Positions 46,401 to 52,400 of a stretch of DNA of 64,000 nt are shown here, piece after piece. A program made the translations under genes and the position numbers. This DNA is from Owenia fusiformis (lineage: Eukaryota > Annelida > Polychaeta > Sabellida > Oweniidae). How positions within the stretch are numbered: the stretch's first letter is position 1; each line of letters starts with the position of its first letter. Location: assembly GCA_903813345.2 (NCBI GenBank), contig CAIIXF020000004.1:26537985-26601984 (forward strand), read 5' to 3'. The notes under the pieces are model-generated. The model was not told the origin of the DNA. It ran no database searches and saw only the letters and a program-made list of their open reading frames with translations.

Positions 46401-49400
46401 ACATATTTAAAGGAATTCATTAAAAACGATAAAGATAACTATTCAATATAAATGTTTTTCATAAAAATCAAAGTCCTTCTCTAACAGATCAAACTATAAC
46501 TTCAAACATATTTTATATAATATAAATAACTGTTATTAATTTATGTCTTTGTTTAACTTTCTGACGAGAACCGAAAGAAAAACTAATGGTTTTCGAACCA
46601 GTAAACGGGAAAATATCGTGATAGTCAGGTAGTCAGTCACTACATACATGCTGCCATCTAACGGCAGAAATCAAACGATGGCGTTTAGAATTTTCACTTC
46701 GCATAATTTGGGTTATTTCTGCAAGGGATTTGACTGAAAACGTGTCAAATTGTTACAGGTAAGACTGACTTTTTAAACTTTTGGAAAATATATGGATTCT
46801 GCGGAAAATTCCGCGGAAATTGACCAAAATAGTTGATTCTGCAATTCCGCAGGCAGAGGCAAATTCCGTCCGCGCTCTGCAAACACGGAATCCTGGGGGC
46901 AGTGTAATACAATGGACAATATGCTTATTAGTGAGATTCACGATTGACGTGCAAAATGAATATCTATGTGTTATACGTCAAAAGGAGTTTGCGTCTCAAC
47001 TGTCTATAGCTTAGACCGAAACACATCACCTCTGTCTAATATTTGATAACAGTTCGTCACTTTTTCAAGTAAAAAGCTTAAAAAACTTTTGCCAGAGAAA
47101 CTTTCACTATAGCTCAGAGAAACTTTGGCCAAATTATTCAAATCTTATTAAGAAAGGCACTTTGCGATTGAATAGATTTGAGATTGCTAAAAAATATATA
47201 GAATTTGGGATTTGGATGAAAATGTAAACAAGTATCTCAAGTCGACAGAAACTCTATAAAGCATGCAAATGTTGTTTTGAAAGAAGGATACTGATGAAGC
47301 AGCAAAGACTAGAAATATAGCAAATATATATTGCTTTCAAAGAAAGCAATATATATTTTTCAAAAGGATATTCACGTACAATCATAATTTCTGAAAAAGT
47401 GGTTATTTTCATCCAAAAATTATTGACAGACTGAGGGAGTGAGCAGAGGGGGAGAAACACCACGGTTCAAAGATGACATACGCTTATAATGTAAATCTGA
47501 ATTGAGATGACATCATCGCTGATTGGTCAAAAGTCGACAAACAAATGACGTCATCAATGGCGGTTTTAAAATTTTTGAAATACGCTTCAAATAATATTAT
47601 GTTCATTTCTTGCGTGTTAACCAATATCATAGCTTCTCATTTCACATCAAGATAAAGAAAGGTCTACGGAATATGCCTATATCAATTAAAACATCCCATC
47701 GAAGTATAGTATTTGATAACTAGCCGATGAAAATTCGAACGAACGAAGGTGGTAAGCAAGAGAGGTAACTATGTCTGTCATCTTTAAACTCTGGGGCTTT
47801 CCCTCCTCTTGGGAGTGAGGAATGGATGATTTCACAGGCAACAAATTATTGTTCAATCAGACCTGTAGCCAGCTTTTGCCAAGGGGGCTTCACATTTGAC
47901 CATTTTGGCCAAAAATCACTTGAAAGTGCTCAGAATGGTTAAAGGCCTACTATATGCGTATTTTCAACATTCTTTGGCAAAATAAAGATTTAATTTTTCA
48001 TAGTATTTCCAACAGATTGATCTTCTACTGGACACCAAAACAGCTCAAATGGGCCACATCAAAGATTACAATAAATTATCAAAAAATATTTTTCAATCTG
48101 TCAAGTTTTATATAAAGTTTTTGCCAATGTCAATGAAAGATGGCGAAGTTGTTTGTATCACACGATCCATTCATTTCTATAGAAGTTTCGCCATCTTTTA
48201 AATCAAGAGTTATTTAAAACTCGCACTTTGTCAAACATGGGTGTGCACTACTAACGATCTCTGATCTCTTATTATTTTTTTCTAGGTGCAATATTAATGC
48301 AAATCAATCTTTGCATCATATTTGATTGAGTGTGTGAGCAACATGTTTCAATGATTGTTTTATCCTTTCTTCTGAAGTAAGCATAGTGGGACTTTAAAAA
48401 CTGCACTCTAGTCACCCACTCTCCAAATCCCCCACTCCCCCAGCTACAGGCCTGTCAATTTTCCCTCTAGAAAATCTACCTGATCTATGTGGTTAGGAAC
48501 ATCCTTCCCAGTAGCTTCAACAGGTATGTCTTCATACCGATCAAAGTTTATTCCAGTCACAGAAGATTCAAATAGCTCCCTACAGAACATGCAATATACA
48601 GATTTGGGGCCTTTTGATTGCTCAAAGGGGCCACAGTAATGTATAGTGTTTCTGAATGGTATACATGTGCCATGGACTTGGAACATGTATAACAAGGGCT
48701 TATGTATGAACAATGAACTGCATGCATTTTAACTATATGACTATTTGTGCATATGGTAACAAAAGAATCATGGTGGTGACATTTTCAAAAAACTGATAAT
48801 AATAAAAAAAGTGTTAATAAACAGTATAAGTGTAAAAAAGTGTAAAAGAGTAGAATTAGCAATAAATGAAGTAAACAGGGAATACTGTATGTAAATGCTC
48901 TAAATTGTATAATGAAATGTAAGAAAATCAGACACTGTATACAACTTTTAGAGAAAACTTAAAAAAACCACCACCTCAACTCTTTTTGTGGGCAACACCA
49001 AATGCTCAGTATACTCTAAGAAATTCATGGTGGACGGTGATGGTTTAGTTTTCAAGTCATTTCAAGTCAACCGCTATGATTTTCTGTAATACACTCAACC
49101 GCCATGATTTTCTGTTACACACTTAGACACACAACTACACGGAATGGATGGCTATTCCACTGTCCTATAAGGGGGGGGGGGGGGAGCAATTCATTTGGAT
49201 GATTAACTCTTAAACAGCTGTGTATCATCACATAAGCATTTTAGGTGAACTTCCCTTATTGCAGGTTTTAGAACAGCCAGATTTTATTTCAAATCAAAAA
49301 CAATCCTCAGTTGTGTGTCTAAGTGAATAGATGAACAAGTGTGATATACTACTAAGTGTTCATACAAATAGCACCACATAACAACTACTAAACAAAAGCC

Positions 49401-52400
49401 AACTAGCTTTTCACTTGTAAAGGCATAGGCTGCAAAAGCCCATCAATAACCAGGGAAAACATATTTAAGTGAAAACATACATAAAGTTGATGTGTTTGTG
49501 AAAAATACGGGGGTGATTTTGCTTCAAACATGGTCAAATTTAGCCAAATTTGTCCCTCATTCGCCTTTAAATGCAAGGTGGAACAACTTGCGTATTTTTG
49601 TAATATATCCTAAGAGGAAAGAATAGTTGGCTAGTATGCTATACACAGAAGTATACAATACACAGTAGTATACAATATGGTGTACATTATGTAGTACTGT
49701 AATAAACACTACATAGTAATATACAATCTGTAGTAGCATACAACAGATAGTAGGATACAATATGTGACAGTTTACAATATGTAGTGCTCCTTGTAGGACA
49801 TAACCCCCTTCACATTCGGCAGACCTAACAATTCAATGATTTAAAAAAATGTTTTTCAACAAAAAATAAACAAGACAATATATCAACACCATATTGCAAT
49901 TACATAATCAAATTGTAACACTTTGTTACAAATGCCAATGCTTAACACCAGTTACAAAATGGTGACTGTAACCATATGTTATTCCTTGGAATTTTTTAAA
50001 TATTGGTACCCAGGTAAATTGGTAGGTCCGACTGATAGAGGGCGTTAAGTGATTAACATACAACAAAGAGAAGAATCTGGACGTGACCTCCATTCCTGGA
50101 TTGACGACCTAAATATCTAACTATCACATTGATGCGCCTGGGGATGTTTTCACCAGTTGCTGTGTCAACAGGGATATCATCATAGCGTTCTAAATTGATA
50201 CTCGGATTAGAATCGAAAAGTTAGCTGAAATAAATATAAATACCTCCTCGATGCATTTTGGTACATTTTCACCGGTCGCCTCTACTGGAATGTCATTGTA
50301 GCGGTCGAAATTGATTCCAGTTGGGTTAGAGTCATAAAGCTCGCTGAAATAAATGAAGGATTATTTCCATGGGTGTGTGCAGACACACACAGAGGTGATG
50401 GTCTTCAGAAAGGAAAACCGGGACCTGCGAAATAACAATACTGATATGTATTATTACAGGGTCCTACGAAACATCAAAAATGAAGAACTTCGTTAACAAT
50501 TAAAGATTATCTCAAAAAAGTAAAGTTCTAATACAATAGTATAGTATATTTTTTAAATTATATTCAAATATTAATAAGAAACTACTACTTATATTAGCTT
50601 GCTTGAGCTGTCTCAGAATAGTAAATCTTCAATGACCCTATGTGCTAGTTAGGGCTCACAGCGAGGCTACATAACATCATCATAGACAATTCATTTGCTA
50701 GTTATATTACAGAAAAACTTGGAAACCCATTCATAGGGCCTTTGTTCAATTTAAAATAAATTGAAATACTTAGTTTTTGGAAGTAATGTAAGAGAAACAA
50801 ATATTCAGACTATGAGATCTCAGTTTATCAGAATTTTAGTCATTCATTAATATCAAAATACTCGTCATTAGGTCTATTTTGCGAGATATCTTACTTTTCC
50901 TGTCGTTCATTTCTGGGTAAGGGTTTATCCCAATCGAGTTTATCATCTTCGGGTTCTTGCCATCTTGAGTTCTGTGGTGCTCCATTACTGGCCCATCTGT
51001 CCACGGGCAACGTGGAGTTCCAGTTGGTATTCTGGTTCCTACAATATGATGTCATAATATAAGTATGATGTCATAATATAAGTAAGATGTCACAAGGACA
51101 GTGTCATAATAACTCGACATATTCTCAAATGTTAACAAATTTTAATTTCCAATTTTAAAGGTTTTCATTATCATGTTAATCAAAAAATTAATTTCTAATA
51201 AAAATGCTAATTACTTTTATTCATTTTGTCTGTCATAAAAAATTCCGACAAGACCCCGAGTTGGAGATCTTTTTAGCATTGCTACGCTATACAATGTTCA
51301 TTACCTGTTTTGCTGAAACTCGCGGTGCCTGTCATTTCCCCAATTACTACCACCACCACCACCACTTCCTCCCCAGCCACTTGTCCCTTGGCTGTCACTG
51401 TTGTCCCACCTATAATACAAACACTACAATATGTGATGATGTCACAATATATGGCCACAATAAGTGATGATGTCACAATATATGGCCACAATAAGTGATG
51501 ATGTCACAATGTGTGGCCACAATATGTGATGATGTCACAATATATGGCCACAATAAGTGATGATGTCATAATGTGTGGCCACAATAAGTGATGATGTCAC
51601 AATATATGGCCACAATAAGTGATGATGTCACAATGTGTGGCCACAATATGTGATGATGTCACAATATATGGCCACAATATGTGATGATGTCACAATGTGT
51701 GGCCACAATATGTGATGATGTCACAGTATATGGCCACAATATGTGATGATGTCACAATATATGGCCACAATATGTGATGATGTCACAATATGTGGCCACA
51801 ATATGTGATGATGTCACAATATATGGCCACAATAAGTGATGATGTCACAATGTGTGGCCACAATATGTGATGATGTCATAATGTGCAGCCACAATATGTG
51901 ATGATGTCACAATGTGTGGCCACAATATAGGATGTCATAAGATGTGACCACATTGTGTGATGATGTCATAATAAATGGCCACAATAAGAGACGATCCGCA
52001 ACATAGATCTGAATAGGTGAGGGCTCTTGCAAGGACAATTTTCAAATAGAAGAAGTATTTTGTCAATATCGCAAATCAGGAAAATACTAAATAAAAACTA
52101 AATGCGATTTATTCTCAGATGATACGTATAGTGCTTGTTTTATATTACAGTATATAAGTGGATAGAACAAAGTAAATTTAAATAGAATTCCCATTGCAAA
52201 TAATAATTTGAATAAAATGCATAACAGAAAGACAATCAAGTTAACAATAGCACTGGATTTGATAATAGAAGAGGGTAGTCCACCTTGTGTTAGTAGGCTG
52301 GGGTGGGGGTCCACTCCCCCATCTTTGGTTGTCTCTACCCCCACTGCCTCCCCAATTGTTGTCCCTGTCACCCCCGCCGCTGCGTCTTCCTCCCCCACTG

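What the first reader, a model, noticed from the sequence alone, without database searches (positions are those of the whole stretch)
48480..50343. Mutually exclusive exon 8 in a DDX3 helicase gene
Two intact homologous 100-nt exons (50244-50343 and 48480-48579) fit the same splice phases and encode alternative versions of the [15 protein letters not shown] segment that precedes the Q motif. Including both adds 200 nt and shifts the frame, so a one-or-other choice is forced. Vertebrate DDX3X, as I know it, has one version of this segment. Swapping it (ELYDSNPT or [13 protein letters not shown] or NHIDQ) could tune ATP binding or RNA handling.
Basis: partly seen in the sequence, partly recalled or inferred. 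Interest (0 to 1): 0.75.

Follow-up and report, generated by a model that had tools for sequence, protein, structure and literature searches.

The report
Swappable exon in a DDX3 helicase
This animal-type DDX3 RNA-helicase gene carries two old, well-kept versions of one exon of which a working message must take exactly one, plus an overlooked third copy that opens with a stop codon, so the cell can probably choose between two forms of a part that handles ATP and RNA.

Summary
The minus strand carries a DDX3 orthologue (exons 2-17 placed; 781 codons). Its exon 8 occurs as two intact 100-nt versions, 8a (50343-50244) and 8b (48579-48480), with the same phases and 22 of 33 residues identical. Either gives an open frame; both or neither gives a premature stop. 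Synonymous sites are saturated (pS 0.89), replacements few (pN 0.20), so both were long kept under selection. Mutually exclusive use is strongly predicted but not shown: no transcripts, genome or relatives were available.

Its first whole codon is TAA and its in-phase donor is weak: a relic or a poison exon.

Mapped to human DDX3X, exon 8 is residues 149-181, covering the ATP-binding loop (152-160) and RNA-contacting Ser181. 8a and 8b differ at three loop positions and at 181 (Glu or Gln). The swap could tune ATP and RNA handling; that is inference. 'Forced' is true of productive mRNA, not of splicing itself: the 8a-8b intron is 1,664 nt. New member of a known kind.

The parts
50244..50343 (-). 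exon 8a (100 nt), version [33 protein letters not shown]
   Evidence: acceptor ttcatttatttcag, donor GAG|gtattt; open frame exons 2-17 when used alone
48480..48579 (-). exon 8b (100 nt), version [33 protein letters not shown]
   Evidence: acceptor tgcatgttctgtag, donor CAG|gtagat; open frame exons 2-17 when used alone
50128..50224 (-). third exon copy 8c (97 nt if the in-phase GT at 50127 is its donor): first whole codon TAA, then [31 protein letters not shown]
   Evidence: tblastn with 8a E = 4e-9; acceptor score 7.91; in-phase donor AAT|gtgata 3.12, below the 16 donors of the gene; an out-of-phase GT, CTG|gtgaaa (exon of 71 nt), scores 4.98
50225..50243 (-). 19-nt spacer gtatttatatttatttcag: the 8a donor and the 8c pyrimidine tract and acceptor in one; taken to be too short for a spliceosomal intron (recalled knowledge)
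   Evidence: sequence
50895..51038 (-). exon 7, upstream constant exon, leaves phase 2 (donor AAA|gtaaga)
44147..44249 (-). exon 9, downstream constant exon, [34 protein letters not shown]
   Evidence: tblastn of the human DDX3X probe E = 1e-8
37436..56125 (-). DDX3 orthologue, exons 2-17, 781 codons before the stop
   Evidence: exon 1 not located
48588..48593 (-). TGCATG (RBFOX-type motif; the label is recalled) inside the 8b 3' splice site; its first base is 14 nt upstream of the first exon base
48721..48726 (-). second TGCATG, first base 147 nt upstream of the first base of 8b
49120..49325 (-). candidate stem in the 8a-8b intron: 17-bp perfect inverted repeat 49120-49136 with 49309-49325
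   Evidence: 0 of 300 dinucleotide shuffles of the intron reached 17 bp

Best explanation
Exon 8 of a DDX3 gene was duplicated in tandem long ago, and 8a and 8b are now mutually exclusive alternatives. Exon 7 is spliced to 8a or to 8b, and that exon to exon 9. Exclusivity in protein is enforced at least by frame: joining both or skipping both gives a premature stop far upstream of the last junction, so such RNAs should be removed by nonsense-mediated decay; trans-acting repression of one exon, perhaps RBFOX on 8b, probably sets the choice. Each isoform is a complete DDX3 helicase; the two differ at 11 residues between human DDX3X positions 149 and 181: three in the ATP-binding loop, one (181) at a position that contacts RNA, the rest nearby. 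The swap most likely tunes RNA-stimulated ATP binding and duplex recognition rather than switching the enzyme on or off. Shown: the two exons, their phases, frames, splice signals and long-term constraint. Inferred: use of both in transcripts, decay of the mis-spliced forms, the regulator, and the biochemical effect. The third copy 8c is most likely a disabled former alternative.
For: 781-codon frame with 8a or 8b; both gives a stop at codon 296 and neither at codon 292, counted from the start of exon 2, 1,323 and 1,135 nt before the last junction. 35 of 99 nt differ, 24 of them at third codon positions; pS 0.89, pN 0.196. 22 of 33 residues identical against a neutral mean of 12.7 and a maximum of 20 in 20,000 simulations. 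ML omega 0.07-0.09 on the 8a/8b branches, with the 8b branch length running to its bound, i.e. saturated. Both match 13 of 14 residues that human DDX3X and yeast Ded1 share in columns 156-181; 8a/8b differences fall on 1 of those 14 columns and on 6 of the other 12 (one-sided Fisher p = 0.02). Acceptors and donors of both lie within the range of the gene's other exons. Mapping to 149-181 rests on chain 6o5f and the stated construct 132-607. Function of the segment: PMC10968774 and PMC6626043 (passages).
Against: No RNA-seq, EST, proteome, own genome or related eukaryotic genome could be searched (none held; two searches gave no relative). The 1,664-nt 8a-8b intron gives no steric block, so double inclusion is physically possible. 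8a's donor ties with exon 2's as the weakest of the 16 by the recalled matrix. With two copies and no outgroup DNA, recent loss of one copy cannot be excluded, only loss soon after duplication. The TGCATG pair is weak after allowing for the many flanks looked at: P = 0.0015 for one 200-nt flank, about 0.05 over 34 flanks (my arithmetic), and the gene as a whole has 6 against 6.7 expected.
Confidence: 0.83

Rival explanations
1. Only one copy is used today; the other is an exon that fell out of use too recently to have gathered lesions.
For: No transcripts were available. With two sequences and no outgroup DNA, omega cannot be split cleanly between the 8a and 8b branches. 8a's donor ties as weakest in the gene. 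A third copy, 8c, already looks disabled, so loss may happen at this locus.
Against: Synonymous sites are saturated (pS 0.89), so both copies coexisted for a long time; a copy free all that time should be unrecognisable by now. Both keep length 100, phase, GT-AG and no stop. Both match 13 of 14 human-Ded1 shared residues.
Confidence: 0.12
2. 8c is not a relic but a working poison exon, and the locus is a three-way switch: 8a or 8b for protein, 8c to shut the gene down, as reported for SCN8A exon 18N. The shared 19-nt spacer would let U1 at the 8a donor and U2AF at the 8c acceptor exclude one another. (This rival concerns 8c and is compatible with the best explanation for 8a/8b.)
For: 8c keeps a sound acceptor (7.91) and, besides the weak in-phase GT, an out-of-phase one (CTG|gtgaaa, 4.98) that scores above the donors of 8a and three other exons; phase would not matter for an exon that opens with a stop. 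Its indels against 8a are one 3-nt loss and one 3-nt gain, and its stop is the first whole codon after the junction. SCN8A's neonatal alternative exon carries an in-frame stop (PMC5740500, passage) and poison exon 18N of Scn8a, taken to be the same exon, is developmentally regulated (PMC7790302, passages).
Against: The in-phase donor AAT|gtgata scores 3.12, below all 16 donors of the gene. 8c has lost Gly157 and Phe160 of the TGINF core. A neutral and a constrained 8c branch fit equally well (lnL -288.23 and -288.62). Using 8c would probably need a branch point inside exon 8a (inference).
Confidence: 0.17
3. 8a and 8b are neighbouring cassette exons in which double inclusion or double skipping is common and productive.
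For: The 1,664-nt intron would allow both to be spliced in.
Against: Both and neither each shift the frame and stop, at the fourth codon of 8b and within exon 9 respectively; the segment is part of the redefined minimal functional core (passages).
Confidence: 0.03

Closest known systems
Tandem-duplicated mutually exclusive exons (class surveyed in PMC5740500 and PMC9741552, passages; e.g. U2AF1 exons Ab/3, PMC5224494, abstract)
   Same: Neighbouring homologous internal exons of equal length and phase; exon length not divisible by three, so joint inclusion shifts the frame (as in 377 clusters, 60%, of the human survey; PMC5740500 section 7); duplicated alternative exons in an RNA-processing gene as in U2AF1.
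   Different: Here in a DDX3 helicase, at the ATP-binding loop; no transcript proof; an extra stop-bearing third copy lies against 8a.
SCN8A exon 18N, poison alternative exon (PMC7790302, passages)
   Same: An alternative copy with a stop next to productive exons; proposed parallel for 8c only.
   Different: 18N is known from RNA and developmentally regulated; 8c has a weak in-phase donor and no RNA evidence.
Human DDX3X N-terminal extension and ATP-binding loop (PMC10968774, PMC6626043, passages)
   Same: Exon 8 encodes the homologous stretch, residues 149-181; T156-F160, Y163 and D165-G172 are the same in human, 8a and 8b.
   Different: Two encoded versions here, differing at 151, 152, 154, 155, 164, 173, 174, 177, 178, 180 and 181. 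One version in human is recalled, not tested.

Membership tests
DDX3 (Ded1/DDX3) subfamily | Best match to DDX3X over Vasa/DDX4 and other DEAD-box proteins | tested here: met
   Among PDB chains: 799 bits to DDX3X, 422 to Vasa, 356 to the 289-residue Ded1 chain; DEAD and Helicase_C domains, plus a marginal ResIII match
DDX3 (Ded1/DDX3) subfamily | N-terminal eIF4E-binding-like motif, Arg/Gly-rich flank, C-terminal DWWGN (labels recalled) | tested here: met
   KYVPPHLR in exon 2 and NDWWGN* in exon 17, seen in the translation
Mutually exclusive exons (MXE) | Neighbouring internal exons, homologous, same length and reading frame, GT-AG | tested here: met
   8a and 8b: 100 nt each, phase 2 to 0, 22 of 33 identical, GT-AG
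Mutually exclusive exons (MXE) | Both or neither gives a non-functional transcript (common, not required) | tested here: met
   Stops at codons 296 and 292 counted from exon 2
Mutually exclusive exons (MXE) | Splice-junction reads from each exon that bridge the other, and no joining reads other than frame-shifting ones | not testable with these tools
   No transcript data; no genome held
Mutually exclusive exons (MXE) | 8c as a coding MXE: no in-frame stop | tested here: not met
   First whole codon TAA; PMC5740500 leaves out candidates with in-frame stops (passage)
Steric exclusion by a short intron | Donor to branch point under about 50 nt | tested here: not met
   8a-8b intron is 1,664 nt; branch points not mapped. 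Met by length only for 8a-8c (19 nt). Threshold from PMC5740500
Poison exon (8c) | In-frame stop well upstream of the last junction | tested here: met
   Stop at codon 260, 1,328 nt before the last junction, with the 97-nt form
Poison exon (8c) | Usable splice sites on both sides | tested here: inconclusive
   Acceptor 7.91; in-phase donor 3.12, lowest in the gene; out-of-phase donor 4.98 (recalled matrices)
Poison exon (8c) | Conservation of the exon and inclusion in NMD-blocked RNA | not testable with these tools
   No relatives or transcripts

The most novel reading that the evidence does not exclude
The locus is a three-state switch in a translation helicase: 8a and 8b give two DDX3 enzymes with different ATP-binding loops and a different residue at RNA-contact position 181, while 8c, whose acceptor overlaps the 8a donor in one 19-nt element and whose first whole codon is a stop, turns the gene off. 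Since DDX3 acts in RNA metabolism, the switch could be self-regulating.
Probability: 0.14. Interest if true: 0.7.

Novelty: new member of a known kind. Interest (0 to 1): 0.5.

Why it matters
If both exons are used, this animal makes two DDX3 enzymes that differ only in and just after the N-terminal extension that reviews describe as essential for the minimal active core (passages). That is a natural swap experiment on the ATP-binding loop and on RNA-contact position 181, with 11 changes that selection has already accepted. It would let one ask whether tissues tune a general translation helicase by splicing, where mammals carry DDX3X and DDX3Y as separate genes. I saw no report of mutually exclusive exons in a DDX3 gene in the listings of searches (20 of 72 papers shown; 20 of 115; 1 of 1; 12 of 527; 15 of 237); these are capped listings with starts of abstracts from an open-access library that lacks most subscription journals, so absence from print is not established.

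Tried and rejected
Own genome: one search answered that none is held. Relatives: alignment A2 (8a, 8b, human segment) against viral contigs (38 pattern stretches, 0 confirmed) and genome contigs (69 stretches, 0 confirmed); both collections are the wrong kind for an animal gene, so this says nothing about conservation.

Is 8c under selection? Pairwise omega looked low (0.08 against 8a, 0.20 against 8b) and crude neutral simulations gave P = 0.003 and 0.023, but that null ignores that the other branch is constrained. The three-sequence codon model could not separate a constrained 8c (omega 0.086) from a neutral one (omega 1, short branch): lnL -288.62 and -288.23, free omega_c 0.73. I therefore make no claim.

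An internal acceptor in 8c (ccgag|T, exon start 50200) would keep frame and skip the stop (my reading of the sequence), but scores -3.39; rejected.

RNA pairing as the exclusivity mechanism: one significant 17-bp stem in the 8a-8b intron, but its arms lie over 500 nt from either exon and I did not search for docking/selector sets; kept as a lead only. It could equally be the ends of a small transposon.

Splice-site scores use approximate matrices recalled from memory, not a trained model. Species was not identified. Odds changed on checking: the poison-exon rival went from 0.15 to 0.17 and the novel case from 0.13 to 0.14, because I had left out the out-of-phase 8c donor of score 4.98.
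Full report
What is there. The minus strand of the window from 56125 to 37436 holds a DDX3 RNA-helicase gene. I placed exons 2 to 17 (exon 1 was not located) and joined them: with 8a or with 8b the frame runs 781 codons to a single stop. Among PDB chains the protein matches human DDX3X with 799 bits, fly Vasa with 422 and a 289-residue yeast Ded1 chain with 356, and it carries the DEAD and Helicase_C domains. It has KYVPPHLR near the start and ends in DWWGN.

Exon 8 in two versions. 8a (50343-50244) and 8b (48579-48480) are each 100 nt, preceded by AG and followed by GT, enter in phase 2 and end on a codon boundary. 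22 of 33 residues are identical. Including both yields a stop at codon 296 (counted from the start of exon 2), the fourth codon of 8b; including neither yields a stop at codon 292, within exon 9; these lie 1,323 and 1,135 nt upstream of the last junction, where decay of the RNA would be expected (recalled rule).

More than chance. tblastn of 8a against the whole window finds 8b at E = 8e-13 and a third place at 4e-9; the next best is 0.40. Of 16 exon proteins searched, exon 8 alone has near-full-length second copies at E <= 0.01. At nucleotide level the same call also found five partial copies of the start of exon 16 and one 32-nt match of exon 4 to exon 5.

Both have been selected. 35 of 99 nt differ, distributed 7, 4 and 24 over codon positions 1, 2 and 3; pS 0.89 (saturated), pN 0.196. 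With 35 random changes, 20,000 simulated copies kept on average 12.7 and at most 20 of 33 residues, against 22 observed, and 55% had a stop. A codon model with 8a, 8b and 8c gives omega 0.07-0.09 for the 8a and 8b branches, with the 8b branch length at its bound. At the 14 columns between 156 and 181 where human DDX3X and yeast Ded1 agree, 8a and 8b each match 13; they differ from each other at 1 of those 14 and at 6 of the other 12 columns (one-sided Fisher p = 0.02). Two copies that old could hardly both be legible unless both were in use for most of that time; a very recent loss of one cannot be excluded.

The third copy. Its first whole codon is TAA; after that it reads [31 protein letters not shown]. 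The 19-nt spacer serves as 8a's donor and 8c's pyrimidine tract and acceptor, so the two should never be spliced to each other by the ordinary machinery (recalled minimum intron size). The tandem similarity runs over 129 nt at 70%. 8c has an acceptor score of 7.91. Its in-phase GTs near the expected end are AAT|gtgata (97-nt exon, 3.12) and ATA|gttaga (103 nt, 1.38), both below the 16 donors of the gene (4.54 to 10.85); an out-of-phase GT, CTG|gtgaaa (71 nt), scores 4.98, above 8a's own donor. It matches 12 of the 14 conserved columns, having lost Gly157 and Phe160. Whether it is still under selection cannot be told: neutral and constrained models fit alike. I favour a disabled former alternative, with a poison exon as a live rival. 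A published parallel for the latter is SCN8A, whose neonatal alternative exon carries an in-frame stop (PMC5740500, passage); poison exon 18N of Scn8a is developmentally regulated (PMC7790302, passages).

How exclusivity could work. Steric exclusion by length fails for 8a-8b (1,664-nt intron), and the sites of both are GT-AG. Frame is the sure filter; in the human survey 377 clusters (60%) have exon lengths that make joint inclusion non-functional and 57 (9%) show possible steric interference (PMC5740500, section 7 read). Two TGCATG motifs lie 14 and 147 nt upstream of 8b, the first inside its 3' splice site; the chance of two in one 200-nt flank is 0.0015, about 0.05 after allowing for 34 flanks (my arithmetic), and the gene as a whole has 6 against 6.7 expected. 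An RBFOX-type repressor of 8b is therefore a testable guess, no more. The 8a-8b intron also holds a 17-bp perfect inverted repeat (49120-49136 with 49309-49325) that none of 300 shuffles equalled; it may be a hairpin of interest or a transposon's ends.

What the swap changes. The crystallised DDX3X core is residues 132-607 (PMC6626043, passages) and the 476-residue chain 6o5f aligns from its first residue, which puts exon 8 at 149-181. As a check, Tyr200, named as a Q-motif residue in PMC10968774 (passage), falls on a tyrosine of the aligned chain. [quoted passage not shown] the structure paper states that Ser181 recognises RNA by hydrogen bonds. 8a and 8b differ at 152, 154 and 155 in the loop, at 181 (Glu or Gln) and at seven further places; TGINF and DIPVEATG are kept. 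Tuning of ATP and RNA handling is the natural inference; nothing here measures it.

Standing. Homologous, in-frame, mutually exclusive exons are a known class; a pair in DDX3 is a new member so far as I could find. The listings of searches, most of them capped, showed no paper on it, and two surveys of human events do not use the term DDX3 (PMC5740500) or DDX (PMC9741552) in their main text. Only open-access papers were covered. The abalone PL10 paper PMC11942353 does not use the words isoform or exon. The species of the window is unknown to me, no transcript was available, and conservation could not be tested.

Noticed in passing
38184-38797 (minus strand), running into exon 16, which starts at 38214: A 112-nt tandem array (5.6 copies, 95% matches). 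Four upstream units each repeat the exon-16 acceptor AG and the first 31 nt of exon 16 (97-100% identical), then run into TGA; a fifth, older unit (83%) lacks the AG. These look like decoy 3' splice sites whose use would truncate the frame.
   Followed up: partly
51426-51986 (intron 5, minus strand): 31-nt tandem array, 18.2 copies, 89% matches, ending 16 nt before exon 6.
   Followed up: no
54637-54823 (intron 2): 30-nt tandem array, 6.1 copies, 91% matches, ending 26 nt before exon 3.
   Followed up: no
50606-50689, 42611-42694, 41209-41292: One 84-nt element, 97.6 and 98.8% identical to the first copy, in three introns of the gene; probably a short mobile element.
   Followed up: no
44653-45984 (plus strand, intron between 8b and exon 9): Reverse-transcriptase-domain fragment of a retroelement (RVT_1, 3.5e-10) inside the intron, antisense to the helicase gene.
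   Followed up: partly
47322-47358: 17-bp perfect hairpin with a 3-nt loop in the intron between 8b and exon 9.
   Followed up: no
58.7-61.4 kb (plus strand): Pieces of a ribosomal protein L2/L8 gene next door (Ribosomal_L2_C in the two pieces tested; the name RPL8 is recalled).
   Followed up: partly
12980-14431 and 25226-26179 (minus strand): Two closely alike leucine-rich-repeat genes or fragments, the second shorter (domains; likeness seen by eye).
   Followed up: no
10580-11377 (plus strand): Enoyl-CoA hydratase/isomerase gene piece (ECH_1 2.7e-32).
   Followed up: no
9996-10283 (plus strand): Short frame that looked to me like the end of a mariner-type transposase (recalled likeness); Pfam gave no match at E <= 0.001.
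   Followed up: partly
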